Assembly (NCBI GenBank): GCA_030445695.1
Contig: JASUTF010000008.1
Location: 1-31,092, forward strand
DNA: 31,092 nucleotides
Reading direction: 5' to 3'
Source: Candidatus Iainarchaeum sp.
GTDB lineage: Archaea; Iainarchaeota; Iainarchaeia; JAADDC01
The notes beneath the pieces are model-generated. The model did no database searches and had not been told where the DNA came from. It was given only the letters and a program-made list of their open reading frames with translations. Both the position numbers and the translations under genes were made by a program. Each line of letters begins with the position of its first letter. The stretch's first letter is position 1. Shown here one piece after another: positions 438 through 31,092 of the stretch.

Positions 438-570
438 AGGTCAGATTCTCTGCCCTGACGACGGACGGTCTTCGCTCCCGCTCGACCGCCCACAACGGGT
501 GTGCGTGGGATCGAAGATCCCACCCGCGGGCGTTCCACCGAAGCACTCGGTGGGCTACACCACGGCCCCA
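438..570 (-). repeat. tRNA-associated repeat element, long form, before tRNA-Pro
   Basis: Read on the minus strand, 569-553 repeats tRNA-Pro nucleotides 1-17 exactly (one more T matches just before them). A 115-bp insert (552-438) follows, and then the complete tRNA. The insert starts with a hairpin built on CCACCGA/TCGGTGG, then has GTGGGATC-ttc-GATCCCAC (523-505), a GGGCGGTC/GACCGTCC stem, and a CAGA-gaa-TCTG hairpin directly before the tRNA. About 90 nt of it match the insert before tRNA-Ile with roughly seven differences counted by eye. The flanking fragment is specific to Pro, which argues for duplication of the target. Confidence 0.85.
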
Positions 571-12393: not shown

Positions 12394-12479
12394 GGGCCCG
12401 CAGCTCAGGGGCCGACGCGGCCCGCGGGTCCGCGGGTGGGGTCTGCGACCCCACGCACATCTGTCAGAGAATCTGGTGT
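12394..12479 (+). repeat. tRNA-associated repeat element, short form, before tRNA-Ala
   Basis: Positions 12394-12408 copy nucleotides 1-15 of tRNA-Ala with one change: C instead of the near-universal U at position 8. A 71-bp insert follows. It has hairpin GGGCC-gacgc-GGCCC (12409-12423), an 8-bp tandem CCGCGGGT, hairpin GTGGGGTC-tgc-GACCCCAC (12436-12454), and CAGA-gaa-TCTG just before the real tRNA. The first 30 or so bases match the inserts at 29914 and 31006. An inverted repeat GGCCAA-ggaat-TTGGCC (12376-12392) stands immediately upstream. The changed U8 shows the outer copy is not the functional 5' end. Confidence 0.85.
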
Positions 12480-12553
12480 GGGCCCGTAGCTCAGTCCGGC
12501 AGAGCGCCCGCCTCGCACGCGGGAGGCCCCGGGTTCAAATCCCGGCGGGTCCA
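12480..12553 (+). tRNA. tRNA-Ala (CGC)
   Basis: The 74-nt cloverleaf has acceptor GGGCCCG with CGGGTCC (one G-U pair at 3-70), anticodon stem CCCGC/GCGGG with loop CTCGCAC (anticodon CGC, reads GCG), T-loop TTCAAAT and discriminator A. No CCA is encoded. The G3-U70 pair is the alanine identity element, which supports the call. The gene is intact behind the duplicated 5' fragment and insert, so correct maturation needs RNase P to cut at the second, inner copy. Confidence 0.95.
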
Positions 12554-12600
12554 CTCACCATTCTTCGTCCTTGCTCGGTGGTAACACCCTTTATTCATGG

Positions 12601-12610
12601 TATAAAAACC
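12601..12610 (+). promoter_or_regulatory. TATA box of the ArlD/E-like gene
   Basis: TATAAAAACC lies 25-30 bp before ATG 12631 and no Shine-Dalgarno sequence precedes the ATG. The arrangement indicates a leaderless transcript covering the ArlD/E-like and MinD-like genes. Confidence 0.65.
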
Positions 12611-12630
12611 CGCGTGCACCGTTTTTTACG

Positions 12631-13122
12631 ATGGGCTTCCCTAAATTCTCGTTCACACCTGCTCAGCCGCTCCCCAACGACCAGCTTAAACGGATACTGG
12701 AGAAGCTCGAGTCCATAGAGAGGGAGCTCCTTCTCCTCAAACGCCGCGTTGCGGAGCTGGAGGGCAAACCCGTTCAGCCAAGGCCTCTTCGCGTTCCCGA
12801 GCCGCAGACACCCATATCGAAACCCGTCCCAGCCAAGGACGTCGGAATGGTCCTCCTCCCCCACGTGGACGTGGGTAACGTCCGGGTGATCGAGACACTG
12901 CTGGACTGGGTCCAGTTCATGCTATCAAAAGTGGGGCACGAGGGGTTTGACGATCTGGTGAACTACTACGTGGAGATCGGCTGGATATCCGACGAGGTTG
13001 CCGAGATCCTCCGAAGGTATGCCAAGGGCATGAACGTGGAAGGAACGCAGGCGTATATGCTCCCGGAGGACCATACGAAGTCCCTTGACTATATTACTCG
13101 CATTCAGGAGGCGATGAGATGA
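12631..13122 (+). CDS. ArlD/E (FlaD/E)-domain protein
   Basis: This 163-aa protein has a short coiled coil at about residues 17-45 (DQLKRILEKLESIERELLLL) and a Pro-rich linker (46-70). An archaellum accessory D/E-type domain spans about 75-132, with ETLLDWVQFMLSKVGHEGFD and YYVEIGWISDEVAEILRRYA. That W..F....G...L..YY..IGWIS pattern is the family's hallmark. ArlD/E proteins link the archaellum motor to the chemotaxis apparatus. No archaellin or motor gene is visible here. The start at 12631 is preferred because the TATA box sits directly upstream; the longer frame from 12571 would read through it. The gene overlaps the MinD-like gene by ATGA. Confidence 0.8.
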   Translation: MGFPKFSFTPAQPLPNDQLKRILEKLESIERELLLLKRRVAELEGKPVQPRPLRVPEPQTPISKPVPAKDVGMVLLPHVDVGNVRVIETLLDWVQFMLSKVGHEGFDDLVNYYVEIGWISDEVAEILRRYAKGMNVEGTQAYMLPEDHTKSLDYITRIQEAMR

Positions 13123-13889
13123 TACTATCTGTTGTTTCCGGAAAGGGCGGTGTGGGGAAGACGTTCACGTCCCTGAACCTCGCAGCAATCCTCTCAGAGA
13201 TGGGACAGCGTGTGCTCGTCGTGGACACGAACTTCACGTCTCCCACGGTCGCCACACACTTCGGAGTGACGCCGGATACTCACACCATTGACGAGGCGCT
13301 CCAGAAGGGCACTTACAACCCAATGGACCTCATATGGATCCATCCCGCCGGATTCCACTTCGTCACGCCGTCCTTCAACATGGTGGCCCTCGACGACCAG
13401 GCGCTTCACACGATCTTCGAGATACTACGGCCGCTCTATGCCAATTACGATACTGTCATCCTCGACGGCCCCGCAGGCGTTGGCAGGGACGTCTACTACA
13501 CGATCATGAACTCCGATGCAGCCCTGATCATAGCAAACCCCAACTACCCCTCTCTCTTCAACGCCCTGAAGACGCACTACTTCGCAAAGCAGCTGGGCAA
13601 GATGGTGCCCGGTGCCGTGCTGAACATGTACAAGAAGGGCACTATATCCCCTTCCGAGGCGTCCCAGATACTCGAACTCCCCATCCTCGCCGTCGTCCCC
13701 GAGGACCCTGCCGTGAAGGAGGCGCTCCAGAAGGGTCAGCTCCTTGTCCAGTACAAGCCGTCCTCACCGGCCGCGAGAGCACTCTACGATCTGGCGGAGG
13801 CACTCACCGGGAGGAAAGTTCAGAAGAGGAAGAAATCAGGGGGCCTGGGCGAGATACTGAGCAAGATCAAGGACTGGCTCCTTTCCTGA
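13119..13889 (+). CDS. MinD/ParA-family ATPase with C-terminal amphipathic helix
   Basis: This 256-aa protein begins MILSVVSGKGGVGKTFTSLN with the deviant Walker A KGGVGKT (9-15). It has the switch-like VDTNFTSPTVATHFG (the usual Asp is present), LDGPAGVGRDVYY as Walker B/switch 2, and a nucleotide-base strand PGAVLNMYKKGT. The last 16 residues (GGLGEILSKIKDWLLS) form an amphipathic helix like the MinD membrane-targeting sequence. Archaeal MinD paralogues position motility and chemosensory arrays rather than the division ring. The overlap with an ArlD/E-domain gene fits that kind of role, which remains inference. It ends before the RNA polymerase promoter region. Confidence 0.88.
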   Translation: MILSVVSGKGGVGKTFTSLNLAAILSEMGQRVLVVDTNFTSPTVATHFGVTPDTHTIDEALQKGTYNPMDLIWIHPAGFHFVTPSFNMVALDDQALHTIFEILRPLYANYDTVILDGPAGVGRDVYYTIMNSDAALIIANPNYPSLFNALKTHYFAKQLGKMVPGAVLNMYKKGTISPSEASQILELPILAVVPEDPAVKEALQKGQLLVQYKPSSPAARALYDLAEALTGRKVQKRKKSGGLGEILSKIKDWLLS

Positions 13890-13923
13890 AAGTTTTTAAT
13901 TCTTTCTCTCCCTCCCCTCGATA

Positions 13924-13976
13924 GTTTTAAATGGGTTATCTGGCAGATGGTATTCAGGCCAGGCCTATACTTTTTG
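13924..13976 (+). promoter_or_regulatory. Promoter region of the RNA polymerase operon
   Basis: Two TATA-like boxes precede rpoH: AGTTTTAAAT at about 13923-13932 and CTATACTTTTT at about 13967-13977. The first would give a leader of about 35 nt containing GGTGAATTTGCATG, a good ribosome-binding site; the second lies too close to the ATG for that. The upstream T-rich stretch TTTTTAATTCTTTCTC (13893-13908) is probably the terminator of the MinD-like gene. Confidence 0.5.
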
Positions 13977-13986
13977 GTGAATTTGC

Positions 13987-14223
13987 ATGGCGGGGAAGCG
14001 ATCCATTCTGGACCATGTCTTGGTGCCCAAGTGCCGTATTCTCAAGGAAGACGAAGTGGAGGAGCTTTTGAAGAAGTATGGCGTTTCCAAGGATTCGCTC
14101 CCGAAGATACTGGCGGACGACCCTGTTGTGAAGGAGCTGGGCGCCAAGAAGGGAGATGTTATTGAGTTTGTCCGGAATTCACCCATTTCCGGCAAGGCGC
14201 TCTATTACCGAGTGGTGGTTTGA
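13987..14223 (+). CDS. rpoH: DNA-directed RNA polymerase subunit H (Rpo5)
   Basis: This 78-aa protein corresponds to the C-terminal domain of eukaryotic RPB5. It reads [20 protein letters not shown] and ends with [20 protein letters not shown]. Subunit H sits at the jaw of the enzyme near downstream DNA. Length is normal for archaea. The start follows GGTGAA with a 5-nt spacer. It is the first gene of the polymerase operon, 9 bp before rpoB''. Confidence 0.96.
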
Positions 14224-14232
14224 GGGGATAAT

Positions 14233-15705
14233 ATGGACAGGTGGGCAGTCATAGACGCGTATTTCCGAGACGAGACGCTGGTTTCCCAGCAGATAGAGTC
14301 GTATAACCAGTTCGTTAACGAGACGATCCCGGAGATCATAGAGGAGAATCAGGTCATAGACCCAGAGGTCGGCGATTTTCAGATAGAACTCAAAGGCGTT
14401 CACATAGAGAAGCCCATGGCCACGGAAATAGATGGTTCTGTTCGCCGTCTCTACCCCATGGAGGCGCGCATCCGCGACAGGAACTACATGGCCTCTATTT
14501 ACCTGGATATGGTCGCCATCCGCCGCGGCGTGGAACTCCAGCGGGCACGCATGCGCATCGGTGAGCTTCCCGTTATGGTTAAATCCGATCTTTGCTGGCT
14601 CAAGGGCCTTTCCCCCAAGGAACTCATCGACCTCGGAGAAGACCCCCTGGACTTCGGGGGCTACTTCATCATCAACGGAAAGGAGAAGATCCTTGTGGCC
14701 CTGGACGAGGCCGCGCCCAACAAGGTCTTCGTTTCCAAGGAGAACAGGTCTAACATATCGGCGGTTGCCACCATATACTCCACACGCGGCATGTATAAGG
14801 GAAGGACGAGGGTGGAACGCAGGAATGATGGTATATGGATCGCCCACTTCCCCCTCGCGCCCAGGAACCTGAAGTGGATCGTTCTTCTCCGCGCACTGGG
14901 CTTCACGGATGATCAGGAGATCCTTGACGCGTTCCTGGGAGAGAAGGAGGTGCTCAACGACGCTTTGCTAAATTTGGAGGCCTCCGAGATAAAGACGGAG
15001 GAGGAGGCCATCGACTACATCGGTAAATACGTCGCGCCCGGCCAGATAAAGGACTACCGCCTCCGCAGGGCACAGGAGGTCATTGATAACTATCTCCTCC
15101 CGCACATCGGCACGTCCCCGGAGGACAGGAAGGCGAAGGGATACTTCCTCATCCGCATGGCTGAGAGGACGTCCGAGGCGGCCTACGGTCTCCGTCCCTT
15201 CGACGACAAGGACCACCTGGCCAACAAGCGTGTCGAGCTATCCGGAAAGCTGATGGAGACACTCTTCCGCTTCGCTTTCCGCGCACTTGTCAAGGATATC
15301 CGTTTCCAGGTGGAGCGTGCCCTTGCACGCCGCAAGAAGCTCCGTCTCAACACGGTGGTCCGCCCCAACGCGTTCACGGAGGCCATCATGTACGGCATGA
15401 GCACGGGGACCTGGCCGAACCGCCGCACGGGTGTTGCCCAGAACATGAACCGCCTGAACTTCATCGCACCCATATACATGGCCCGTCGTGTTAACTCTCC
15501 ACTTTCCAAGCGCAGGAAGAACTTCGAGGCCCGTGAGGTCCATGGTACCCACTTCGGTCGTTTCTGCCCCATTCAGACGCCGGAGGGTGTTTCCGCCGGT
15601 CTTATCAAGTATCTTGCCCTCACGGCGAAGGTTACCACCGCTTCGGATGCAGGCAAGATGGACCGTCTCCTGAAGAAGCTTGGAGTTAAACCGGTGATTG
15701 GATGA
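14233..15705 (+). CDS. rpoB2: RNA polymerase subunit B'' (N-terminal half of B)
   Basis: This 490-aa subunit carries the N-terminal half of the beta-like subunit: protrusion, lobe and fork. Signature pieces are YFIINGKEKILVALDEAAPN, SGKLMETLFR and RRTGVAQNMNRLN, and the fork-region HGTHFGRFCPIQTPEGVSAG near the C-terminus. The split from B' by an ATGA overlap is the natural arrangement of many euryarchaea, not a frameshift. ATG 14233 follows GAGGGGATAAT. Confidence 0.96.
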   Translation: MDRWAVIDAYFRDETLVSQQIESYNQFVNETIPEIIEENQVIDPEVGDFQIELKGVHIEKPMATEIDGSVRRLYPMEARIRDRNYMASIYLDMVAIRRGVELQRARMRIGELPVMVKSDLCWLKGLSPKELIDLGEDPLDFGGYFIINGKEKILVALDEAAPNKVFVSKENRSNISAVATIYSTRGMYKGRTRVERRNDGIWIAHFPLAPRNLKWIVLLRALGFTDDQEILDAFLGEKEVLNDALLNLEASEIKTEEEAIDYIGKYVAPGQIKDYRLRRAQEVIDNYLLPHIGTSPEDRKAKGYFLIRMAERTSEAAYGLRPFDDKDHLANKRVELSGKLMETLFRFAFRALVKDIRFQVERALARRKKLRLNTVVRPNAFTEAIMYGMSTGTWPNRRTGVAQNMNRLNFIAPIYMARRVNSPLSKRRKNFEAREVHGTHFGRFCPIQTPEGVSAGLIKYLALTAKVTTASDAGKMDRLLKKLGVKPVIG

Positions 15706-17510
15706 GCGAGGCAAAGGTATATATTAACGGTCGTCTGGTGGGCTTCCACAAGGAGCCCAAGAAGCTCGTGGAGGCCATTCGTGCCAAGCGCCGCAACGGT
15801 CAGATTCCTTACACGGTTTCCGTCACGTATTACGAGACGACGAACGAGGTCTACGTTTATACTGACGCGGGCCGTGTTGCGCGCCCCGTTATCGTTGTGA
15901 AGGATGGAAAGCCGCTCCTCACGGAGGAGCACATAAAGGCGCTTGAAGAGGGAAGGATCACCTGGAGGGACCTTGTCCGCCAGGGCATCGTCGAGTATCT
16001 CGACGCGGAGGAGGAAGAGAACGCTTACATCGCCCCTGACTACGACTCCGTCACGAAGGAGCATACGCACGTGGAGATTCACCCCATCATTATCCTCGGT
16101 TTTGGCGTTTCCATGCTCCCCTGGGCGGAACGCAACCTTTCTTCCCGTAACCTGCACGGTGCAAAGATGCTTGACCAGGGCCTGGGCCTCTACGCGGCTA
16201 ACTTCCGCCTGAGAACGGACACCATGAGCTACGTTCTTTACTATCCGCAGAAGCCCATTGTCAAGTCCCGCGTTTCCGACTACATCAACTACGACCGCCG
16301 CCCCTCCGGGCAGAACATCGTCGTTGCACTCACACCGGATCTATACGCCATGGACGACGCCCTTGTCATGAACTTGGACTCCGTGCAGCGCGGTCTTTTC
16401 CGCGCCGTCTTCTTCAGGACGTATGTGGGCGTCGAGCGGCGTTATCCGGGTGGTCAGCGCGACCGCTTCGAGCTCCCCACCCCCGAAGTGTCCGGTTACC
16501 TGGGGGAGGAGTATTACCATGCCATCGGCGAGGACGGTCTCCCCATTCCCGAAACGTATGTGAAGGGCGGTGACGTTCTCATCGGCAGGACTTCTCCGCC
16601 GCGCTTCCTCGAGGAGGTCACCCAGTTCGGCATCATAGAGGAGCACCGCAACGAGTCCTCCATAACCGTCCGCATGGACGAGGAGGGCTACGTGGACACG
16701 GTACTCATAACGGACGACCCCAACGGTTCCAGGATGGTGAAGGTGAAACTCCGCCAGGAGAAGATCCCGGAGCTCGGCGACAAGTTCGCTGCCCGCGGTG
16801 GTCAGAAGGGTGTCATCGGCATGCTCGTCCCCCACGAGGACATGCCATACACGGAGAACGGTATCGTCCCGGACCTGATCTTCAACACACACTCCTTCCT
16901 CTCCCGTATGACCGTTTCTTACCTGCTTGAAATCCTCGGTGCCAAGGCGGGGGCCCTCAAGGGCGAGCACATCGACGCGACGCCGTGGCACGAGCAGCCC
17001 GTTGAGTACTTCGAGAAGGTGCTCCGTGAGCACGGTTTCAGGCCCACGGGCAAGGAGATCCTCTACGACGGTGTTACGGGCGAGGAGATGAAGGCAAGGA
17101 TATACATGGGCCCCATGTATTACCAGCGGTTGAAGCACCTGGCATCCCAGAAGATACAGGCACGTGCCCGCGGTCCCGTTCAGATCCTCACGCGCCAGCC
17201 CACAGAGGGTAAGGCCCGCGAGGGTGGTATCCGTTTCGGTGAGATGGAGAGGGACACGCTCATCGGGCACGGTGCGGCCATGACGCTCTACGAGCGTCTC
17301 GTCGAGGAATCCGACAAGACGACGATCCTCATATGTGAGCAGTGTGGCAACGTGGCGGTGGACGACGCAATCCGCAAGGAGCGCTACTGTCCGGTCTGTG
17401 GATCGAGAAGGGTGCATGAGGTCGAGGTCTCTTATGCCTTCAAGCTCCTGCTGGATGAGCTGAAGGCACTGGGCATATATCCGAAGATCGTACTCCGTGA
17501 CAAGGCGTGA
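15702..17510 (+). CDS. rpoB1: RNA polymerase subunit B' (C-terminal half of B)
   Basis: This 602-aa subunit continues the B subunit. It starts MSEAKVYINGRLVGFHKEPK and includes KLRQEKIPELGDKFAARGGQ KG (switch 3/hybrid-binding region with the conserved GDKFA.R.GQKG) and GEMERDTLIGHGAA. It also carries a CxxC...CxxC zinc site (CEQCGNVAVDDAIRKERYCP followed by VCGS). It completes the catalytic core together with A'. It overlaps rpoB'' by 4 bp (ATGA), and rpoA' begins at its stop codon. Confidence 0.96.
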   Translation: MSEAKVYINGRLVGFHKEPKKLVEAIRAKRRNGQIPYTVSVTYYETTNEVYVYTDAGRVARPVIVVKDGKPLLTEEHIKALEEGRITWRDLVRQGIVEYLDAEEEENAYIAPDYDSVTKEHTHVEIHPIIILGFGVSMLPWAERNLSSRNLHGAKMLDQGLGLYAANFRLRTDTMSYVLYYPQKPIVKSRVSDYINYDRRPSGQNIVVALTPDLYAMDDALVMNLDSVQRGLFRAVFFRTYVGVERRYPGGQRDRFELPTPEVSGYLGEEYYHAIGEDGLPIPETYVKGGDVLIGRTSPPRFLEEVTQFGIIEEHRNESSITVRMDEEGYVDTVLITDDPNGSRMVKVKLRQEKIPELGDKFAARGGQKGVIGMLVPHEDMPYTENGIVPDLIFNTHSFLSRMTVSYLLEILGAKAGALKGEHIDATPWHEQPVEYFEKVLREHGFRPTGKEILYDGVTGEEMKARIYMGPMYYQRLKHLASQKIQARARGPVQILTRQPTEGKAREGGIRFGEMERDTLIGHGAAMTLYERLVEESDKTTILICEQCGNVAVDDAIRKERYCPVCGSRRVHEVEVSYAFKLLLDELKALGIYPKIVLRDKA

Positions 17511-17515
17511 TGGGC

Positions 17516-20134
17516 ATGGTGGCGAGAAAGACAATCGGCATGATCAAGTTTGGCATCCTCTCCCCCGAGATGATAAGAAAGATGAGCACGGTGGAGGTAA
17601 AGGTTGCCGAGACGTATGATGAGGACGGTTTCCCCATCGAAGGGGGGCTCATGGACCCCCACATGGGCGTTGCAGACCCCGGGCTCCGCTGCAAGACCTG
17701 TGGCCAGAAGATGAACAGGTGTCCCGGCCACTTCGGCAGAATCGAACTCGTCCGCCCTGTGGTGCACTCGGAGTATGCCCGCTACATCGAGTACTTCCTC
17801 AACGCTTTCTGCCCCAAGTGCGGGCGACCTCTTGTTTCTGACCAGGAGTTCACGGAGATCGTCTCTTCCCACCCCAAGAAGAAACGCCTCAAGGCACTGG
17901 CGAAGAAGGGTGCCTCCGTCAAGAAGTGCCCCCACTGTGGCTTTGAGAGAACTCCTGTCCGTCTTGACAAGCCCACGAACTTCTTCGAGGGCGATCGCCG
18001 CGTCTGGCCCACGGAGATCCGCGAGCGTCTCGAGAAGATACCCGACGCGGACCTCGAGCGTCTGGGCTTTGACCCCAAGAACTTCCGCCCGGAATGGCTG
18101 GTGCTCACCGTTCTCCCCGTTCCCCCCGTTACCGTCCGTCCATCCATCGTTCTTGAGACGGGCGAGCGTGCGGAGGATGACTTAACGCATAAACTCGCGG
18201 ACATCGTTCGCATCAACCAGCGTCTGAAGGAGAACATAGACGCGGGAGCACCCCAGCTTATCATAGAGGACCTATGGGACCTCCTGCAGTACCACGTGAC
18301 CACATACTTCAACAACGAGACGCCCGGAGCACCGCCCGCACGCCACCGCTCCGGCAGGATACTGAAGACGGTGATCCAGCGTCTCAAGGGCAAGGAGGGC
18401 CGTTTCCGCTACAACCTCTCTGGCAAGCGTGTAAACTTCGCCGGCCGTGCTGTCATCTCCCCTGACCCCATGCTGGACATAGACGAGGTGGGTGTGCCCG
18501 AGTGGATGGCGCGCATCGTTACCGTCCCCCTCCACGTGACGGAGTGGAACATGGACGAGGCGAGGAAGTATCTCGAGGCGAAGGACTATCCAAGAGCACT
18601 CTACGTGGTGCGTCCCGACGGTACGAGGAAGCGTGTGACAGATACGAACCGCGAGGAGCTCCTCGAAGAACTCGCGCCGGGCTACGTTATAGAGCGTCAG
18701 GTCATTGACGGTGATATCGTTCTGTTCAACCGCCAGCCCTCCCTGCACAGGATGTCCATGATGGCCCTGAAGGTCCGAGTTCTCCCCGGCAGGACGCTGA
18801 GGATCCAGCCCGCCGTCTGCCCGCCCTACAACGCGGACTTCGACGGAGACGAGATGAACATCCACTTCCTGCAGACCAAGGAGGCACAGGTTGAAGCAAG
18901 AGAGCTTATGCTCACAACGAAGCACGTCATATCGCCCCGCTACGGTGGGCCCATCATCGGCCTGACCAAGGACTACATCACGGCCCTCTTCCTCCTGACA
19001 CTACCGTGGACCAAGTTCACAAAGGAGCAGGCCATGGATCTCCTCTACGCCGCAGGCATCACAGAACTGCCGGAACCGGACGAGGACGGTATGATTTCCG
19101 GAAGGGCGATCTTCTCCATGCTGCTTCCAGACGACCTGAACATGAAGTTCCCGTCCACACTCGGCAAGCACCTTGTGGCCGTCGGTCTCGCGGACAAGAA
19201 GGGCAACGGTCCCATCAGCCCGATCACCGTTATCGAGAACGGTAAACTTATCCGCGGCGTCATAGACAAGGCAGCCGTCGGTACGGGCAAGGGTCGCCTG
19301 CTGGACTACATGTACCGCCGCTACGGAGAGGAGTTCACGAAGGAGTTCACCACTCGCGTCTCCCGCATGGCAAACCGCCTGCTCTACATGTTCGGATTCA
19401 CGAACTCTTACCACTCGCTCAAGACGCCGGAGGAGATTGACCGCAAGATCGATGAGATCGTTGACAGGGCGTTGAAGAAGGTCTACGAATACGTGGATCA
19501 GTATAACAAGGGCAAGCTCGAGCCCATTCCGGGCCGTGACGTGGAGGAGTCATTGGAGATTTACATCATGGTTACCCTCAGTCAGGCCGAGAAGGAGGTT
19601 CAGACGCTGCTCCAGAGGCACCTGCTGGAAACGAAGCTGGACCCAGTGCACATCCTGGACAACTTTGCCCAGATATTCTCCGGTGCACGCGGATCCTTCG
19701 CCAACATAAAGAACCTCATGGGTGTTCAGGGCCAGGCGGCTGTCCGCGAGAAGCGCCCGCACCGTGGTCTATACCAGCGTGTCATTTCCCACTTCAAGCG
19801 TGGCGATTTGGGTCCATTTGCCCGTGGATTTGCCCGCAGGAACCTCAGGGATGGCCTTACCATGGACGAGCTGTTCTTCTGGGGCATGGGTGGCCGTATG
19901 GGCGAGGTGGACAAGGGTGTGTCCACCCAGATCACCGGATACTACTACCGCCGTCTCTCCAACGCCATGATGGATCTCCTCGCCTTCCCGGACGGAACCG
20001 TCAGGGAGGTCACGAGGGACACCATCGTCCAGTTCACCTTCGGAGACGACGGCCTGAACCCGCAGAAGCTGCGTCACGGCGAGGTGCCGCTGGACGTCCT
20101 TTACGACGAAATTAAGGCAGGTGAGAAGAAATGA
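17516..20134 (+). CDS. rpoA1: RNA polymerase subunit A'
   Basis: This 873-aa clamp and catalytic subunit starts MVARKTIGMIKFGILSPEMI. It has the zinc ribbons CKTCGQKMNRCPGHFG and CPKCG...CPHCG in the clamp. The active-site loop YNADFDGDEMNIHF contains the three Mg-binding aspartates. A bridge-helix region precedes the end of the protein, with GRMGEVDKGVSTQITGYYYR near the break to A''. ATG 17516 is chosen because GTGAT precedes it with a GGGC spacer, the regular signal here. ATG 17510 and GTG 17507 in the same frame are alternatives that overlap the rpoB' stop. Confidence 0.96.
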   Translation: MVARKTIGMIKFGILSPEMIRKMSTVEVKVAETYDEDGFPIEGGLMDPHMGVADPGLRCKTCGQKMNRCPGHFGRIELVRPVVHSEYARYIEYFLNAFCPKCGRPLVSDQEFTEIVSSHPKKKRLKALAKKGASVKKCPHCGFERTPVRLDKPTNFFEGDRRVWPTEIRERLEKIPDADLERLGFDPKNFRPEWLVLTVLPVPPVTVRPSIVLETGERAEDDLTHKLADIVRINQRLKENIDAGAPQLIIEDLWDLLQYHVTTYFNNETPGAPPARHRSGRILKTVIQRLKGKEGRFRYNLSGKRVNFAGRAVISPDPMLDIDEVGVPEWMARIVTVPLHVTEWNMDEARKYLEAKDYPRALYVVRPDGTRKRVTDTNREELLEELAPGYVIERQVIDGDIVLFNRQPSLHRMSMMALKVRVLPGRTLRIQPAVCPPYNADFDGDEMNIHFLQTKEAQVEARELMLTTKHVISPRYGGPIIGLTKDYITALFLLTLPWTKFTKEQAMDLLYAAGITELPEPDEDGMISGRAIFSMLLPDDLNMKFPSTLGKHLVAVGLADKKGNGPISPITVIENGKLIRGVIDKAAVGTGKGRLLDYMYRRYGEEFTKEFTTRVSRMANRLLYMFGFTNSYHSLKTPEEIDRKIDEIVDRALKKVYEYVDQYNKGKLEPIPGRDVEESLEIYIMVTLSQAEKEVQTLLQRHLLETKLDPVHILDNFAQIFSGARGSFANIKNLMGVQGQAAVREKRPHRGLYQRVISHFKRGDLGPFARGFARRNLRDGLTMDELFFWGMGGRMGEVDKGVSTQITGYYYRRLSNAMMDLLAFPDGTVREVTRDTIVQFTFGDDGLNPQKLRHGEVPLDVLYDEIKAGEKK

Positions 20135-21231: not shown

Positions 21232-21233
21232 CC

Positions 21234-21536: not shown

Positions 21537-21539
21537 GCC

Positions 21540-22388: not shown

Positions 22389-22390
22389 TC

Positions 22391-23023: not shown

Positions 23024-23028
23024 TGATC

Positions 23029-25218: not shown

Positions 25219-25227
25219 TACCATTTC

Positions 25228-25241
25228 CCTTATAATTTTAC
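25228..25241 (+). promoter_or_regulatory. Possible internal promoter for EF-1A
   Basis: CTTATAATTTTACC lies in the 63-bp gap between fusA and the EF-1A gene, about 45 bp before ATG 25282. The gene has its own strong AGGAGGTG ribosome-binding site in the resulting leader. This would let EF-1A be made at higher levels than the rest of the operon. Confidence 0.5.
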
Positions 25242-25281
25242 CCTATCCAAAATGGTAGAGATGAACAAGGAGGTGTGAAAT

Positions 25282-26553
25282 ATGCCCAAGGAGAAGCCCC
25301 ACCTGAACCTGGTGTTTATTGGTCACGTCGACCACGGAAAGTCCACAACGATCGGCCGTCTCTTCTATGACCTCGGGCTTATCGACCAGCGTAAGCTCGA
25401 GGAGCTCCGTAAGGAGGCGGAAGAGAAGGGTAAGGCAGGATTCGAGTTCGCATACGTTATGGACAAGCTCAAGGAAGAGCGTGAGCGAGGAATAACTATA
25501 GACGTCGCATACCGTGACTTCGAGACGCCCAAGTACTACTTCACGATTATCGACGCACCCGGCCACATGGACTTCGTCAAGAACATGATCACGGGTGCAG
25601 CGCAGGCAGACGCGGCAGTGCTCGTCGTCGCAGCATCCGAGGGTGTCCAGCCGCAGACACGCGAGCACTCCATCCTCGCAAAGACGCTCGGTATCAACCA
25701 GATGATCGTGGCTATCAACAAGATGGACATGGTCAACTACGACCAGAAGAAGTACGAGGAGGTCAAGGCAGAGGTCGAGAAGCTCCTCAAGGGCTTCGGC
25801 TACGACATGAACAAGGTGCAGTTCATCCCGATCTCCGCTCTCAAGGGCGACAACGTCGTCAAGAAGTCCGAGAACATGCCGTGGTACAATGGGCCCACGC
25901 TCTACGAGGCCTTCGACAAGCTCGAGGAGCCACCCAGGCCCATTGACAAGCCGCTGCGCATCCCGATCCAGGACGTCTACTCCATCAAGGGTGTCGGTAC
26001 GGTGCCTGTTGGCCGCGTCGAGTCCGGTGTGCTCCGCGTTGGTGACAAGGTCCTCTTCATGCCGGTGAACAAGACGGCAGAGGTCAAGTCCATCGAGATG
26101 CACCACGAGCCGCTCCAGGAGGCAAAGCCCGGTGACAACATCGGTTTCAACGTCAAGGGTGTCAGCAAGGACGAGATCAAGCGCGGTGACGTTGTGAGCC
26201 ACCCAGACAACCCGGCAACCGTTGCAGCACGCTTCAAGGCACGCATCGTCGTGCTCCAGCACCCCACAGCGATCACGGTGGGTTACACACCTGTGTTCCA
26301 CATCCACACGGCACAGGTGGCCTGCCGCTTCGAGCAGCTGCTCCAGAAGATTGACCCCAGGACCGGCCAGGTGGTCGAGGAGAACCCACAGTTCCTCAAG
26401 ACCGGTGACGCAGCGCTTGTCGAGATCGTGCCCACCAAGCCCGTTGTGGTGGAGCGCTTCCAGGACTTCCCGGCACTCGGCCGCTTCGCCATCCGTGACA
26501 TGAGCCGCACGGTGGCGGTCGGTGTCGTTACAGAGGTCACGCCCAGGCAGTGA
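25282..26553 (+). CDS. tuf: Translation elongation factor 1-alpha
   Basis: This 423-aa GTPase delivers aminoacyl-tRNA to the ribosome. It has G1 [15 protein letters not shown]2 [15 protein letters not shown]3 [14 protein letters not shown]4 NKMDMV and G5 SALKGDN. Domains 2-3 are complete to [16 protein letters not shown] near the C-terminus. It is preceded by AGGAGGTG, the best Shine-Dalgarno sequence in the window. Codon use is even more biased to G/C-ending codons than neighbouring genes, as expected for a very highly expressed protein. It may be named tef1A. Confidence 0.97.
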
Positions 26554-26580
26554 CCTCCCCTTTCCTTTTAGTTATTTCCA
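26554..26580 (+). terminator. Pyrimidine-rich stretch after EF-1A
   Basis: CCTCCCCTTTCCTTTTAGTT and TTTCC follow the EF-1A stop. T-rich tracts such as this can terminate archaeal transcription, although S10 follows in the same direction with its own GGTGAT signal, so read-through is likely. Confidence 0.4.
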
Positions 26581-26595
26581 TTTACGGTGATAATC

Positions 26596-26904
26596 ATGAT
26601 CGCACGTATAAAGCTCGCAGGGACGGACCACAGGGTCCTCGATGACATTGCACAGAAGATCATATCCATCGCAAAGCAGGCGGGCGTTAAGGTAGCCGGT
26701 CCCATTCCTCTGCCCACCAAGAAGCTCCGCGTTGCTGTTCGTTACTCCCCGGACGGGCAGGGTTCTGAGACGTATGAGCACTGGGAGATGCGCATCCACA
26801 AGAGGATAGTCCAAGTGGCCGCTGATGACCGCGTTATGAAGATGATTCTCCGCATTCCCATACCGGAGAACGTCAAGATCGAGATCAAACTCCTGGCGGA
26901 GTGA
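26596..26904 (+). CDS. rps10: 30S ribosomal protein S10
   Basis: This 102-aa protein with ARIKLAGTDHRVLDDIAQKI, GPIPLPTKKLRVAVRYSPDG and YEHWEMRIHKRIVQVAADDR is a clear uS10. It binds in the 30S head. The start 26596 follows GGTGAT-AATC; the ATG at 26587-26592 region in frame would overlap that signal. It closes the polymerase/str cluster, which is convergent with the kinase-like gene 50 bp away. Confidence 0.95.
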   Translation: MIARIKLAGTDHRVLDDIAQKIISIAKQAGVKVAGPIPLPTKKLRVAVRYSPDGQGSETYEHWEMRIHKRIVQVAADDRVMKMILRIPIPENVKIEIKLLAE

Positions 26905-26934
26905 TTCCGCCACCAACATACTACTTCTGCCGCA

Positions 26935-26963
26935 AAAAGAAGAATTTGAGGGGATCAGTCCCC
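26935..26963 (-). terminator. Hairpin and T-run at the end of the adenosine-kinase-like gene
   Basis: On the minus strand GGGGA-ctga-TCCCC (26963-26950) is followed by a T-rich run ending CTTCTTTTT. The stop codon TGA lies in the loop. This has the form of an intrinsic terminator. Confidence 0.5.
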
Positions 26964-27446
26964 AAAGTAGCCGAACTTCCTGACCAGTTCCTTCCTTTCT
27001 CTTCTCTCTTCCTCGCTCTCCACGTGGTCCGCGGGCGTTCCATCCACCACGCCGATGACTGCTCTCCCCAGATCCGTCTCCGCCACAATCACCTGGAACG
27101 GGTTGCTCGTTGCCAAGTAAATGTTAGCAACGGTGGGCAACTGTTTGATCGCGTTCATCACATGGATGGGGAACGCGCCACGCATTACGATGACGAATAC
27201 GTGTCCCGCACCGATTTTCAGTGCTATGTCCGCCGCTATCTTCTTGAGTTCCTCATCCGTGCCCGTAACTCTAACAACCTTCGGTTTTGCCTCGTTCATG
27301 GCCGCACCGAACTTCGCACCGGGCACCGAAGAGTAAACGGCGTCGTAGAGATCCTCGATGGTCTTAATCGTGAAGTTCCCCTGGCCTATGATTATCTCGT
27401 AGTCAGGCGTTCCGAAATCCAGAACCTCGATCTTTACCCCCACCAT
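26955..27446 (-). CDS. Adenosine-specific kinase-like protein (COG1839 type)
   Basis: This 163-aa protein contains EIIIGQGNFTIKTIEDLYDA, SSVPGAKFGAAMNEAKPKVV, IGAGHVFVIVMRGAFPIHVM and PFQVIVAETDLGRAVIGVVD. These segments run along the family known as adenosine-specific kinase (Pfam PF04008 from memory). Members of this fold have been crystallised with nucleotides, but the physiological role is poorly known. Length is normal. The start at 27446 stands about 25 bp from GTTATAAGC (27476-27468), so the gene is probably leaderless. It diverges from the GalT-type gene with only 30 bp between start codons. Confidence 0.85.
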   Translation of the reverse strand: MVGVKIEVLDFGTPDYEIIIGQGNFTIKTIEDLYDAVYSSVPGAKFGAAMNEAKPKVVRVTGTDEELKKIAADIALKIGAGHVFVIVMRGAFPIHVMNAIKQLPTVANIYLATSNPFQVIVAETDLGRAVIGVVDGTPADHVESEEERRERKELVRKFGYFGD

Positions 27447-27476
27447 GTTTATATTATGGGAAGAGGTGCTTATAAC
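27447..27476. promoter_or_regulatory. Interlocked divergent leaderless promoters
   Basis: The plus-strand TATA box TTTATATTA (27448-27456) touches the minus-strand start codon, and the minus-strand TATA box GTTATAAGC (27476-27468) touches the plus-strand start codon. Each box is about 25 bp from the gene it should serve, in only 30 bp of non-coding DNA. The two transcription complexes cannot fit side by side. Confidence 0.6.
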
Positions 27477-28349
27477 ATGTTCAACTACGTGCGCCTCGAC
27501 GGCGAGTTCCCGATCATCGTTTCCGAGAAGCGTGCTGCCCGCCCCCACCTTCATAAACAGAAGAAGACAAAGGCCTGCCCCTTCTGTCCGGGCAACGAGG
27601 ACATGACTCCTCCTTCCGTTCTCGAACGAAAGCGCTCTGACGGTTCGTGGTATATCCGTGTTTTTGAAAACGCATTCCCCTTTGTCCGGCCGGACAACGT
27701 GGAGGCATATGGCTATCATGAGGTGGTCGTCGAGACGGATGAGCACGATAGGCCGTTCCATTCCTTGCCCGCGGGTCATATAGCCGAGGTCATTCAGGTG
27801 TGGGGCGAGCGGGAATATTACATGTATCAAGACGAGAAGATACAGTATGTGGCCATCTTCAAGAACCACGGTGCGGACGCGGGTGCCTCCATACCACATT
27901 CACACTCTCAGATCGCGGGAATTACGTTCATTCCTCCGCGCGTTGAGTATCGGTTACGTAAGTATCCACCATCTCCCTCTATCCACATATTCTCCGGCGA
28001 GTTCTGGTCCGTCGTTGCACCTTTAACACCAAGGTTCGCATATGAGGTCCGCATCCAGCCAAGAATCCCCGTCTACCATGTTTATGAACTGAACTACGAT
28101 CAACGCTTCGAGCTTGCCAGAATACTCAAGGCACTCCTCCAGAGGGTGAGCACTGTTGTGGATGCCTATAATATCGCTGTTTTTACTTCCCCCCGCAAAG
28201 GTATGATCCCCCTGCACCTCGAGATCTACTCCAGAAAAAACAAGCACGCTGGGTTCGAGTTAGAGACGGGTGCATACGTTGTTCCCGTCTCCCCTGAAAC
28301 GACCGCGAAGTTCTACTCCGCGGAGGATGTATTCAAGAACGTTCTTTAA
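27477..28349 (+). CDS. galT: GalT-type nucleotidyltransferase (HIT superfamily)
   Basis: This 290-aa protein has the zinc-type CPFCPGNEDMTPP at about 34-46, EVVVETDEHDRPFHSL, KNHGADAGASIPHSHSQIAG with the HxHxQ catalytic motif (His143 in the nucleophile position), and a second half with VHR-less tail ending SAEDVFKNVL. GalT enzymes swap UMP between UDP-glucose and galactose-1-phosphate. Related archaeal proteins may act on other sugar phosphates or as ADP-glucose/adenylylsulphate phosphorylases, so the substrate is open. The HIT motif has Ser where GalT usually has Pro (HSHSQ, not HPHxQ). The start at 27477 follows a TATA box; upstream in-frame extension overlaps the divergent gene. Confidence 0.82.
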   Translation: MFNYVRLDGEFPIIVSEKRAARPHLHKQKKTKACPFCPGNEDMTPPSVLERKRSDGSWYIRVFENAFPFVRPDNVEAYGYHEVVVETDEHDRPFHSLPAGHIAEVIQVWGEREYYMYQDEKIQYVAIFKNHGADAGASIPHSHSQIAGITFIPPRVEYRLRKYPPSPSIHIFSGEFWSVVAPLTPRFAYEVRIQPRIPVYHVYELNYDQRFELARILKALLQRVSTVVDAYNIAVFTSPRKGMIPLHLEIYSRKNKHAGFELETGAYVVPVSPETTAKFYSAEDVFKNVL

Positions 28350-28372
28350 TTCTTCCCATCAATCGTTTACGG

Positions 28373-28446
28373 GGGCCCGTAGCTCAGCCTGGCAGAGCAT
28401 CCGGCTTTTAACCGGAGTGTCGCGGGTTCGAATCCCGCCGGGCCCG
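28373..28446 (+). tRNA. tRNA-Lys (TTT)
   Basis: The 74-nt cloverleaf has acceptor GGGCCCG/CGGGCCC, anticodon stem CCGG with loop CTTTTAA (anticodon TTT), T-loop TTCGAAT and discriminator G. TTTAATT at 28344-28350 is a suitable TATA box about 25 bp upstream and overlaps the galT stop codon. This tRNA starts with the same 15 nt as tRNA-Ala but has no 5' duplicate or insert, making it the natural uninterrupted comparison. Confidence 0.95.
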
Positions 28447-28493
28447 CATACTCAACCCTTTTATTCTCTCTGCACAGAATTTCTTCTGCCGGT

Positions 28494-28511
28494 CGGATCC
28501 CGTGGGATCCG
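28494..28511. repeat. Perfect inverted repeat between tRNA-Lys and tRNA-Gly
   Basis: CGGATCCC-gt-GGGATCCG is an 8-bp perfect stem with a 2-nt loop, in the 105-bp gap between tRNA-Lys and the tRNA-Gly element. The T-rich CCCTTTTATTCTCTC (28457-28471) before it probably ends the tRNA-Lys transcript. A TATA-like GATTTAGGGG (28531-28540) after it is weak. No gene fits here. Confidence 0.55.
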
Positions 28512-28551
28512 GGTGCTGAGGGCAACCGATGATTTAGGGGCCGAGTGCCAT

Positions 28552-28636
28552 GCGCCGGTAGTCTAGGGCCAGGTGCTCTGGCCGCGCGCACGCGGGTCCG
28601 GTCTGCGACCGGACGCACAACCAGGCAGACCTCGAA
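28552..28636 (+). repeat. tRNA-associated repeat element, short form, before tRNA-Gly
   Basis: Positions 28552-28566 copy nucleotides 1-15 of tRNA-Gly exactly. The 70-bp insert opens with hairpin GGCCAG-gtgct-CTGGCC (28567-28583). It has GTCCGGTC-tgc-GACCGGAC at 28596-28614, followed by the family's GCACA. The stem keeps its pairing although several base pairs differ from the other loci. The 3' part (CCAGGCAGACCTCGAA) is the most diverged and lacks CAGA-gaa-TCTG. Confidence 0.8.
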
Positions 28637-28709
28637 GCGCCGGTAGTCTAGCCTGGTAGGACGTCGGCCCCCCAAGCCGACGACCCGGGTTCAAATCCCG
28701 GCCGGCGCA
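28637..28709 (+). tRNA. tRNA-Gly (CCC) with C at position 33
   Basis: The 73-nt cloverleaf has acceptor GCGCCGG/CCGGCGC, D-stem GTCT/GGAC, anticodon stem TCGGC/GCCGA, T-loop TTCAAAT and discriminator A. The anticodon loop reads CCCCCAA, giving anticodon CCC and C instead of the almost universal U at position 33. A sequencing or homopolymer error in the run of six Cs is possible. Confidence 0.9.
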
Positions 28710-28767
28710 CTTTTATTTTCCCGGTGCTTTGTCATCTTCTTTAACCTTTTCTGCACTTCTTTCTTTG

Positions 28768-29871
28768 ATGGATTTGGCGTCACTACTGCTTCTCGCCGTT
28801 GTCCCCGTTTCCATAGAGTTCATTGTAGCACTACTGTATCTCCTGGTTCCGAGCAGGCCGCCCAATTCTCCAAAGCACTTCAACAGGCACAGAATCGTGC
28901 AGATCACCACTCGCGACGCTCCTCCCGAGCTTCTACGGAGGACGATATCCGAGATCCGCAAGTACGATCAGGACGTCCTTATTTTCGTTGTGACGGACAA
29001 TCAGAACCCCGTCCGGGTGGAGGGAAAAAACATAAAGTACCTTATTGTCCCTCCTGACTACAAAAACGGGAAGGCAAAGGCGCGGGCGTTGAACTACGCG
29101 CTGGAGTGGAAGATGCAGCACTTCCCACTGGACAGAACGTATACCCTCTTCATAGACGAGGAGAACCTCGTTTCTGAACGGTTAATGGAGTATTTGAAGC
29201 ATTTCCACGGGCTTATCAGTGTTGGTCCCTCCCTTTTCCACCGGAGTGGTAGTGTTCTTGCCTGGCTGATGGACGGTTCCCGCAACGCTTCGGACGCTGT
29301 TTTCCGCCTGCTTGCCAGCCACGGCCTGCCCGCGTGGCACGGCGAGAATGTGATCATGCGGTTGGATGTGGAGGCGGCTGTGGGCTGGCGTTCCGGACTG
29401 GCAGAGGACCTTTTAACGCATCTGGCGATATTCGAGCGTTTTGGCAGGATATACTCGTGGCACGATTACCCTGTTTACTCTTTCTCCCCCATGGACCTGA
29501 AGGACCTGTTCAGGCAGCGCCGGCGCTGGCATCTCGGACTTTTTGAGGCGCTCTTCAAGTCAAAGCATCCGTTACGATTCTACTTCGGGTATAAGGTGCT
29601 TGTCTGGCTTTTAGTATCCCTCGTTATACTTATCGGGCTGCTGCACCCAGGCCTGACGATCCCCGCATGGGCAAAGGTTCTTGCACTCGTTGGTGTTGCC
29701 ATGTACGTTTATGGCTGGGTCAGGAACGGTGTCCCCGCCCCCCTTGTGTTTGTGGGGGCGATTGTGCAGCCGATTCTCTTTGTGGTGGAGACCCTCACCC
29801 TCTACTATGCTATTGTCGCACCCACCAAGCAGTTTGAGATAATAAAGAAGCCCGGCTACGCCAAGATTTAA
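28768..29871 (+). CDS. Membrane glycosyltransferase, family 2 type
   Basis: This 367-aa protein is a processive-looking inverting glycosyltransferase. It has an N-terminal membrane helix (about 5-27), NGKAKARALNYALEW (nucleotide-sugar region), DEEN in place of DxD (130-133), AEDLLTHLAIFERFG with the ED motif (about 213), QRRRWHLG (Q/RxxRW, 250-257), and three or four C-terminal helices. It probably builds a cell-surface glycan using an NDP-sugar at the inner membrane face. ATG 28768 is preferred: the TATA-like CTTTAACCTTTT lies about 25 bp upstream and no Shine-Dalgarno exists. A TTG at 28729 opens the longer frame but lies before the TATA box. Sugar specificity is unknown. Confidence 0.82.
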   Translation: MDLASLLLLAVVPVSIEFIVALLYLLVPSRPPNSPKHFNRHRIVQITTRDAPPELLRRTISEIRKYDQDVLIFVVTDNQNPVRVEGKNIKYLIVPPDYKNGKAKARALNYALEWKMQHFPLDRTYTLFIDEENLVSERLMEYLKHFHGLISVGPSLFHRSGSVLAWLMDGSRNASDAVFRLLASHGLPAWHGENVIMRLDVEAAVGWRSGLAEDLLTHLAIFERFGRIYSWHDYPVYSFSPMDLKDLFRQRRRWHLGLFEALFKSKHPLRFYFGYKVLVWLLVSLVILIGLLHPGLTIPAWAKVLALVGVAMYVYGWVRNGVPAPLVFVGAIVQPILFVVETLTLYYAIVAPTKQFEIIKKPGYAKI

Positions 29872-29898
29872 AATGATCATCTTTCATTTTTGTGAGCT

Positions 29899-30026
29899 GG
29901 GACCGTAGCTCAGGGGCCGACGCGGCCCGCGGGTCCGCGGGTGGGATCTCCGATCCCACGCACATTCGCTGTGGGCGGTCGAGCAGAAGCGAAGACCGTC
30001 CGTCGCCAGGGCAGAGAATCTGACCT
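29899..30026 (+). repeat. tRNA-associated repeat element, long form, before tRNA-Ile
   Basis: Positions 29899-29913 copy nucleotides 1-15 of tRNA-Ile exactly, 128 bp before the real gene. The 113-bp insert has GGGCC-gacgc-GGCCC, tandem CCGCGGGT and GTGGGATC-tcc-GATCCCAC (29941-29959). It also has a GGGCGGTC/GACCGTCC stem and CCAGG-g-CAGA-gaa-TCTG-a-CCTGG next to the tRNA. Its last 90 bases nearly match the tRNA-Pro element. The TATA-like TTTAAAA (29867-29873) is placed about 29 bp before the outer copy. Confidence 0.88.
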
Positions 30027-30101
30027 GGGACCGTAGCTCAGCCTGGTTAGAGCGTCCGCCTGATAAGCGGGAGGTCGCCGGTTCAAATCCGGCCGGTCCC
30101 A
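30027..30101 (+). tRNA. tRNA-Ile (GAT)
   Basis: The 75-nt cloverleaf has acceptor GGGACCG/CGGTCCC, U8, anticodon stem TCCGC/GCGGG (first pair U-G) with loop CTGATAA (anticodon GAT), T-loop TTCAAAT and discriminator A. No CCA is encoded. T-rich CTATTTTATTTAAA follows and also contains the TATA box of the next gene. Confidence 0.95.
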
Positions 30102-30138
30102 CCTATTTTATTTAAACGCTTGAAACGCTATTTCTTCG

Positions 30139-30951
30139 ATGCGCAAGTATGATATTGAGTGGCGATCCTTCGAGGCGAACGACGGTGCAAGGATCGCGTA
30201 CCGTGTTCTTGGCGATCCGGAAAAGCCGCACGTTATGCTTATTCACGGCTGGGCTGTGAGCGGCGAGTACTGGAGGCCCCAGTTCCCCCTTTCCACCGGT
30301 CTTTATCTCATCGTCCCGGATCTGCGCGGTTACGGCGAGAGCGAGGTGAAGGGACCCTTTACCATAAGCAGGATGGTTGTGGATCTTCTGGACCTTGCCA
30401 GGCGCGAGGACGTGCGTTTCATCGTCGGTCACTCCATGGGCGGGGCCATTGCCCAGCAGCTCGCAGCAAACTTTCCTGACATGTTCGACGGTGTGGTTCT
30501 CGCCTCCACCTTTGCCCGATTCGGCTCGCCGTTCTCCGCGAAGTTCTTCGAGAAGGCAGTCCCACTCCTTAACAAGATAGATCTCCGTTCTTTTGCCCGT
30601 TTTGCCACAAACTTTTCTTACAACGTGGACAAGAGGACAAAACTCTTCTTCTACAGGCAGTATCTTAAGTGCAACAAGGAGGTTGTTCTCGAAAACGCCA
30701 AGGAAATCCTCAGTTATGACGGCACGTGGAACCTGCCCGCCATCGACTCCCCTGTTCTGATCATACACGGCGACCACGACCCCGTTGTCCCCCCTAACCA
30801 CGCCGACTATATAGCGGATCATATCGTGGACGCCCACGTCGTCATCGTCCGTGATGCGGGCCATGAGGTGAACTACAACGATCCCGATCTCTTCAACACG
30901 CTCGTTTACGGTTTCGTGCAGTCGGCAGTGGATGGTGTGCTCAAGCAATAA
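30139..30951 (+). CDS. Alpha/beta-fold hydrolase
   Basis: This 270-aa protein has the full catalytic set of the family. The oxyanion loop is LIHGWAVSGEYW (34-45), the nucleophile elbow GHSMGG has Ser99, the acid is Asp214 in HGDHDPVVP, and the base is His242 in DAGHEV. DLRGYGESE is the usual post-strand-4 loop. A helical cap lies at about 130-195. The fold covers esterases, haloperoxidases, dehalogenases and others, so the substrate cannot be read. TTATTTAAACG (30109-30119) is about 25 bp from the ATG and no Shine-Dalgarno is seen, so it is probably leaderless. It is transcribed away from tRNA-Ile as an independent unit. Confidence 0.88.
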   Translation: MRKYDIEWRSFEANDGARIAYRVLGDPEKPHVMLIHGWAVSGEYWRPQFPLSTGLYLIVPDLRGYGESEVKGPFTISRMVVDLLDLARREDVRFIVGHSMGGAIAQQLAANFPDMFDGVVLASTFARFGSPFSAKFFEKAVPLLNKIDLRSFARFATNFSYNVDKRTKLFFYRQYLKCNKEVVLENAKEILSYDGTWNLPAIDSPVLIIHGDHDPVVPPNHADYIADHIVDAHVVIVRDAGHEVNYNDPDLFNTLVYGFVQSAVDGVLKQ

Positions 30952-30990
30952 AAACATTCCCACTCTTTCATTCTTCTGCTGATCCGACCT

Positions 30991-31077
30991 GGGCCCGTAG
31001 CTCAGGGGCCGACGCGGCCCGCGGGTCCGCGGGTGGGGTCTGCGACCCCACGCACGTCCGGTCAGAGAATCTGGTGT
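30991..31077 (+). repeat. tRNA-associated repeat element, short form, at the right window edge
   Basis: Positions 30991-31005 equal 31078-31092 exactly (GGGCCCGTAGCTCAG). The 72-bp insert is almost the same as the tRNA-Ala one, with GTGGGGTC-tgc-GACCCCAC at 31033-31051 and CAGA-gaa-TCTG before the second copy. AATAAAAAC (30948-30956) upstream of the outer copy is a possible TATA box, about 38 bp away. Confidence 0.85.
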
Positions 31078-31092
31078 GGGCCCGTAGCTCAG
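31078..31092 (+). tRNA. 5' end of a tRNA cut by the window edge
   Basis: Fifteen nucleotides identical to the start of tRNA-Ala and tRNA-Lys (acceptor GGGCCCG, U8, D-stem GCTC, A14, G15) are the last bases of the window. By analogy with the four complete loci the rest of the gene should follow. The amino acid cannot be told from what is visible. Confidence 0.65.

What the first reader, a model, noticed from the sequence alone, without database searches (positions are those of the whole stretch)
12394..31092. Dispersed small elements inserted at tRNA 5' ends with a tRNA-specific 15-17 bp duplication
Seen: before tRNA-Pro (553-569), Ala (12394), Gly (28552), Ile (29899) and the cut tRNA (30991) stands a second copy of that tRNA's own nucleotides 1-15 (17 in Pro). 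A 70-115 bp insert follows, then the intact gene. The inserts are related, while the flanking copies follow the host tRNA. So the copies come from duplication of the target and not from sequence carried by the element. The tRNA-Lys gene with the same 15-nt start has no insert. Inference: a non-autonomous mobile element family that inserts in the D-loop after nucleotide 15 and leaves the tRNA functional. I know of no described archaeal element with this target and duplication length.
Basis: partly seen in the sequence, partly recalled or inferred. Interest (0 to 1): 0.92.

Follow-up and report, generated by a model that had tools for sequence, protein, structure and literature searches.

The report
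Hairpin elements duplicating small-RNA gene ends
In one small family of DPANN archaea, short hairpin-rich DNA elements have repeatedly inserted at the very ends of tRNA genes (and at least twice at the end of a C/D-box RNA gene), each time duplicating the last 12-25 bases of that gene so that an intact copy is left; no enzyme that could move them was found.

Summary
In the window, tRNA-Pro(cgg), Ala(cgc), Gly(ccc), Ile(gat) and a cut tRNA-Ala(tgc) are each preceded by a copy of their own first 15-17 nt, a 70-115 bp hairpin-rich insert, then the intact gene. Genome-wide, 14 tRNA genes carry such a 5' insert. Own-end copies are absent from 7,600 shuffled controls. The inserts share a covarying two-hairpin core found in 6 of 10 genomes of the family and in none of 77 other genomes of the class. 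Relatives have the same promoters running straight into the tRNA (empty sites; for Ile, Asn and Thr of this genome among others). Two elements in relatives sit at the 3' end of C/D-box RNA genes with 25- and 17-nt direct repeats. So these are non-autonomous insertions with target duplication, aimed at ends of small-RNA genes. The mobilising enzyme is unknown: no Cas1, reverse transcriptase, tyrosine recombinase or Y1 transposase was found in this (incomplete) genome, and terminal inverted repeats are clear only in a few copies. The result resembles casposon integration but fails casposon membership.

The parts
195..232 (-). outer direct repeat of the 3'-end insertion of tRNA-Pro(cgg): copy of the tRNA 3' end (from 213) plus 18 nt of flank
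   Evidence: 38-nt direct repeat with 344-381, 3 mismatches (sequence)
233..343 (-). 3'-end element of tRNA-Pro(cgg), hairpin-rich
   Evidence: lies between the two direct repeats; related 3' element at Pro(ggg) C3
344..437 (-). inner direct repeat (344-381) and intact tRNA-Pro(cgg) 362-437
   Evidence: Rfam/ARAGORN tRNA
438..552 (-). 5'-end element of tRNA-Pro(cgg)
   Evidence: R1 covariance-model match 496-553; 89% identical to the Arg(tcg) element
553..569 (-). copy of tRNA-Pro nt 1-17
   Evidence: 17/17 identical
12394..12408 (+). copy of tRNA-Ala(cgc) nt 1-15, one mismatch
12409..12479 (+). 5'-end element of tRNA-Ala(cgc)
   Evidence: R1 match 12409-12463
12480..12554 (+). intact tRNA-Ala(cgc)
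28373..28447 (+). tRNA-Lys(ttt) with the same first 15 nt as tRNA-Ala and no insert
28552..28566 (+). copy of tRNA-Gly(ccc) nt 1-15
   Evidence: 15/15
28567..28636 (+). 5'-end element of tRNA-Gly(ccc); related species G003 has the same element at Gly(ccc) with a rebuilt hairpin 2 stem
   Evidence: R1 match 28566-28623, 72.7 bits
28637..28710 (+). intact tRNA-Gly(ccc)
29899..29913 (+). copy of tRNA-Ile(gat) nt 1-15
   Evidence: 15/15
29914..30026 (+). 5'-end element of tRNA-Ile(gat): left half like the Ala elements, right half like the Arg/Pro elements
   Evidence: R1 match 29914-29968; empty site in G002
30027..30103 (+). intact tRNA-Ile(gat)
30991..31005 (+). copy of tRNA-Ala(tgc) nt 1-15
31006..31077 (+). 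5'-end element of the cut tRNA-Ala(tgc)
   Evidence: R1 match 31006-31060
31078..31092 (+). first 15 nt of tRNA-Ala(tgc), cut by the contig end (remainder at the start of contig C27)

Best explanation
A non-autonomous mobile element family. SHOWN: hairpin-rich inserts of about 65-200 bp sit at termini of small-RNA genes (5' and 3' ends of tRNA genes, 3' ends of C/D-box RNA genes), each between a partial copy of the gene's terminal 12-25 nt and the intact gene; related genomes have empty sites; insert sequence is shared between sites while the duplicated sequence follows the host gene; the core forms two hairpins whose stems covary. INFERRED: an integrase acting in trans makes a staggered cut with one nick at the gene's terminus and the other about 15-25 bp inside it, joins the element between them, and gap repair creates the duplication, so the gene stays functional with a longer leader or trailer. 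The covariation suggests that the hairpins are recognised as folded single strands (DNA or RNA), or must fold so as not to disturb the neighbouring RNA. The copy then decays.
For: Own-end copies against shuffles: 12/39 vs 0/7,600 and 10/39 vs 0/7,800. Shared inserts with host-specific copies. Empty sites: the flank before the copy aligns with the flank directly before the tRNA in relatives, at the shuffle floor (p = 1/201) for G000 Asn, Ile, Thr; G002 Ala(ggc), Thr; G003 Glu(ctc), Val(cac), Pro(ggg); G009 Gly(gcc). Non-tRNA targets: 25-nt repeat at a C/D-box RNA in G001 (L208; Rfam sR28 E=6.9e-7) and 17-nt repeat with one mismatch at one in G002 (L246). Decayed copies in G001-G003. Family restriction. 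Covariation 0.518 vs 0.196+/-0.024 shuffled, 0/500 shuffles; hairpin 2 paired in 93.6% of cells with double changes in 6 of 7 pairs.
Against: No Cas1, RT, tyrosine recombinase or Y1 transposase in G000, G001 or G003, though all are incomplete MAGs and other transposase families were not searched. Left and right ends are not significantly inverted-repeated in most copies. Duplication length varies (12-25 nt, exceptionally 30-67), unlike a typical DDE transposase. Hairpin 1 mostly stands beside the copy, but not in all 3' cases (G008 Pro, G002 Gly). Hairpin 1 is not perfectly aligned in A2 (72% of cells paired).
Confidence: 0.66

Rival explanations
1. Replication or repair template switching: synthesis stalls in the highly structured small-RNA gene, copies a hairpin stretch from another leader or trailer, and re-enters a little upstream, giving an insert plus a duplication of variable length. 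No dedicated enzyme is needed.
For: Variable duplication length, one of 67 nt in G008 Leu(caa) that also repeats an older element's right part; mosaic elements (Ile = Ala-like left half + Arg/Pro-like right half); no mobility enzyme found; few inverted repeats.
Against: The outer junction falls at the gene terminus (within 0-6 nt) in nearly all cases and the inner junction clusters at 15-17 nt (5') or 16-24 nt (3'); restriction to one family of the class; covarying hairpins.
Confidence: 0.2
2. A conserved leader/trailer RNA domain with a function in tRNA maturation or regulation, the terminal copy being part of its fold, spread by recombination between tRNA genes.
For: Strong covariation; in several copies RNAfold pairs the copy with the linker; Gly(ccc) in G000 and G003 keeps a perfect copy although the insert tail has diverged.
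Against: Presence differs between species at the same tRNA; copies decay; swapping copies between elements does not weaken the predicted pairing significantly (27% of shuffles as good); insertion at C/D-box RNA genes.
Confidence: 0.11
3. Remnants of tyrosine-recombinase (att-site) integration in tRNA genes, each element carrying its own tRNA end.
For: tRNA genes are the usual att sites and integrated elements leave partial tRNA copies (described for Thermococcaceae, PMC9897764).
Against: Some 20 different tRNA ends and two C/D-box RNA ends with related inserts would each need their own att; PF00589 is absent from G000, G001, G003; inserts are only about 65-200 bp.
Confidence: 0.03

Closest known systems
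Casposons / casposase (Cas1-type integrase)
   Same: Integrates at tRNA gene ends, leaves the gene intact, duplicates 14-15 bp of target (PMC6614799, PMC6977970).
   Different: [quoted passage not shown] mazei only its last 4 bp lie in tRNA-Leu). Here the duplication varies in length, reaches 12-25 nt into the gene, occurs at both ends and at C/D-box RNA genes, and no casposase was found.
Archaeal and bacterial MITEs
   Same: Short, non-coding, multicopy, flanked by direct repeats, presumably moved in trans.
   Different: Sequence TIRs mostly absent; hairpin structure conserved rather than sequence; restricted to ends of small-RNA genes (the word tRNA does not occur in the prokaryotic MITE review PMC10969869).
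REP/REPIN hairpins moved by Y1 (RAYT) transposases
   Same: Small dispersed hairpins.
   Different: No Y1 transposase in the family; REP movement is not known to make a target duplication (own knowledge).
Partial tRNA copies left by integrated elements
   Same: Partial tRNA copy beside an intact tRNA.
   Different: Those come from integration of horizontally transferred elements at a few tRNAs (PMC9897764); here inserts are about 65-200 bp and occupy more than 20 tRNA genes in one genome.

Membership tests
Casposon | cas1-solo (casposase) gene, usually with polB | tested here: not met
   No Cas1 in G000, G001, G003; the two Cas1 genes in the family (G002, G005) lie among CRISPR-Cas genes, judged by reading the neighbouring proteins
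Casposon | 14-15 bp target duplication | tested here: not met
   5' sites mostly 12-21 nt (commonest 15), 3' sites mostly 15-25, C/D-box RNA sites 17 and 25, outliers to 67
Casposon | terminal inverted repeats | tested here: inconclusive
   clear in G000 Val(tac)/Val(gac) 3' elements (0 of 100 shuffles as high), not significant in most
MITE | short, no coding capacity, multicopy, related copies | tested here: met
MITE | direct repeats of target at the ends, and empty sites | tested here: met
MITE | TIRs shared with an autonomous transposon | tested here: not met
   TIRs mostly absent; no autonomous partner found, but the search covered four enzyme families in incomplete MAGs
REP/REPIN with RAYT | Y1 transposase in the genome | tested here: not met
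   PF01797 absent from all 10 family genomes
Retroelement (target-primed reverse transcription) | reverse transcriptase available | tested here: not met
   PF00078 only in G002, not in G000, G001 or G003
Split, permuted or intron-bearing archaeal tRNA | tRNA gene interrupted so that no intact gene exists at the site | tested here: not met
   an intact tRNA gene stands beside the inserts; one fragment without tRNA is L192
Known Rfam RNA family | match at the gathering score | tested here: not met
   only tRNAs reach it; the C/D-box matches (below gathering score) in L208 and L246 are the targets, not the element

The most novel reading that the evidence does not exclude
A new kind of mobile element that is recognised by its folded single strand (DNA or RNA) rather than by sequence, and is integrated at the termini of small non-coding RNA genes in general, tRNA or C/D-box, by an undescribed enzyme or host process that duplicates the RNA gene's terminal 12-25 nt.
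Probability: 0.3. Interest if true: 0.9.

Novelty: new variant of a known kind. Interest (0 to 1): 0.74.

Why it matters
It would be a set of mobile elements that use the ends of essential small-RNA genes as a safe harbour in a 0.66 Mb archaeal genome, with about 22 of some 40 tRNA genes hit. It also points to an integration activity, so far unidentified, that senses the ends of small-RNA genes.

Tried and rejected
Casposase: Cas1 hits in the family are CRISPR-Cas. Reverse transcriptase, tyrosine recombinase, Y1 transposase: absent from G000. Viral, phage or plasmid carriers: four motif scans of viral contigs gave nothing; a fifth, short pattern hit 15 contigs that I take as chance and did not examine further; no phage or plasmid match. 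tRNA-specific pairing between copy and linker: not significant. Sequence TIRs: mostly not significant. RNase P loss as a reason for odd leaders: RNase P RNA found in 8 of 10 family genomes, though not in G000. EF-2 of relatives looked interrupted by an intein: the extra match is a separate neighbouring gene. Known Rfam families: none. Literature: seven searches, nothing describing this.
Full report
CHECK. The window is the whole of contig C11 of a 664 kb, 29-contig, 88.6%-complete archaeal genome. ARAGORN and Rfam find tRNA-Pro, Ala, Lys, Gly and Ile. Reading the sequence confirms the five copy-insert-gene arrangements. The last tRNA is cut by the contig end; its remainder is at the start of contig C27 and is Ala(tgc). 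Searching the genome with the insert gives 23 matches, and several contigs begin or end in it, so the repeats break the assembly.

GENOME-WIDE. Of about 40 tRNA genes, 12 have a complete 5' arrangement; Ala(tgc) and Ala(ggc), split over contig ends, make 14. The 3' ends show the mirror image at 10 genes: Pro(ggg), Pro(cgg), Pro(tgg), Cys, Glu(ttc), Glu(ctc), Val(tac), Val(gac), Ser(gga), Leu(gag). Copies of a gene's own end occur far beyond chance: 12/39 against 0/7,600 shuffles at 5' ends, 10/39 against 0/7,800 at 3' ends, where one of the ten counted (Trp) is only the neighbouring tRNA-Arg gene. The duplicated stretch reaches 12-20 nt inside the gene at 5' ends (most often 15) and 15-24 nt at 3' ends, usually with 0-6 nt outside it; a few are longer, such as 38 nt at the Pro(cgg) 3' end in this window and 67 nt in G008 Leu(caa).

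THE INSERT. Sites share insert sequence while the copy follows the host: the Arg(ccg), Pro(ggg) and Pro(cgg) stretches are 89-93% identical to Arg(tcg), yet carry their own tRNA starts. The Ile element is a mosaic. The common core is hairpin 1, a linker ending GCGGGT or GCGAGG, hairpin 2, and CACA. A 20-sequence alignment gives a covariation score of 0.518 against 0.196+/-0.024 for shuffles (0/500), falling to at most 0.19 when partners are slid; hairpin 2 is paired in 93.6% of cells and six of its seven pairs show changes on both sides. A covariance model of this core finds 6-32 matches in each of 6 of 10 genomes of the family and none in 77 other genomes of the class. In G000 the matches lie beside a tRNA gene or at a contig end that belongs to one.

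EMPTY SITES. For filled sites I compared the flank before the copy with the flank directly before the same tRNA in relatives. The clearest case is Glu(ctc): filled in G003, empty in G000 and G002, with promoter 'CGCCTACTTTTAAAACCATTTCT..GCTCCCATTCTACTGCT' in all three. G000's own Ile, Asn and Thr(ggt) elements have empty counterparts in G002 or G003 at the floor of the shuffle test (p = 1/201; 78 comparisons were made, and many other pairs were not alignable). The promoter thus precedes the copy, as expected if the element split the original gene start from the rest.

NON-tRNA TARGETS. Most matches in relatives that seemed away from tRNAs proved to lie beside tRNAs once fetched. Two lie at C/D-box RNA genes: L208 (G001) and L246 (G002). 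In L208 a C/D-box RNA (Rfam sR28, E=6.9e-7, just under the gathering score) is followed by an element and then a copy of its last 25 nt with two mismatches. In L246 a C/D-box-like RNA (E=0.001-0.006 to several families) has the same arrangement with 17 nt and one mismatch. This shows that the duplication is not a peculiarity of tRNA sequence. L192 is a tRNA-Thr 3' fragment plus element without an intact tRNA in view, and L251 is an orphan module.

MECHANISM. Insertion with target duplication is well supported. The enzyme is not. Cas1 occurs only in G002 and G005, in CRISPR-Cas loci; reverse transcriptase only in G002; tyrosine recombinases only in G002, G005, G007; Y1 transposase nowhere. All these are incomplete MAGs. 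Inverted repeats between the two ends of one element are significant in few copies, best in Val(tac) and Val(gac), although many elements have a hairpin at each end in inverted orientation. The duplication length varies more than a single DDE transposase would give. I therefore commit to staggered-cut integration by an unidentified activity in trans, and keep template switching as the main rival.

IS THE COPY FUNCTIONAL? In G000 5' copies are nearly perfect; in relatives many are worn (Ala in G002, Val(cac) in G003, Val(cac) in G001). RNAfold often pairs the copy with the linker, but exchanging copies among elements did not worsen it significantly. Gly(ccc) keeps a perfect copy in both G000 and G003 despite divergence of the insert tail. 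This remains open.

COMPARISON. Casposase duplicates 14-15 bp and prefers tRNA 3' ends (PMC6614799, PMC6977970): the present elements work like that, but membership fails on enzyme and on duplication length. The MITE definition is met for size and direct repeats but not for TIRs or partner (review PMC10969869). Elements that integrate in tRNA genes leave partial tRNA copies (PMC9897764). The literature searches found no description of this arrangement; the library holds open-licence papers only, so novelty is provisional.

TAXON. I did not settle the classification.

Noticed in passing
window 31078-31092 and G000 contigs C4 start, C8 start, C27 start: Assembly breaks at the repeated Ala elements; the contigs could probably be joined (C11 to C27, C4 to C8).
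   Followed up: partly
window 28480-28551: CGATGATTTAGGGGCC stretch upstream of the Gly(ccc) copy, conserved in G003; perhaps another small RNA or a promoter element.
   Followed up: no
L196, L206, L207 (G003, G001): Long serial arrays of hairpin modules upstream of Leu tRNA genes, apparently from repeated insertions.
   Followed up: partly
L251 (G003:C98:3608): Element-like module with no tRNA or Rfam RNA nearby (an orphan).
   Followed up: no
L210 (G002:C80): Type III-like CRISPR-Cas locus in a 1 Mb MAG that is larger than its relatives; could be binning contamination.
   Followed up: no
G000, whole genome: RNase P RNA not found although present in 8 of 10 family genomes; probably in a missing part of the genome.
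   Followed up: no
L254 955-1010 and L252 911-965: Further C/D-box RNA candidates near tRNA genes with elements.
   Followed up: no
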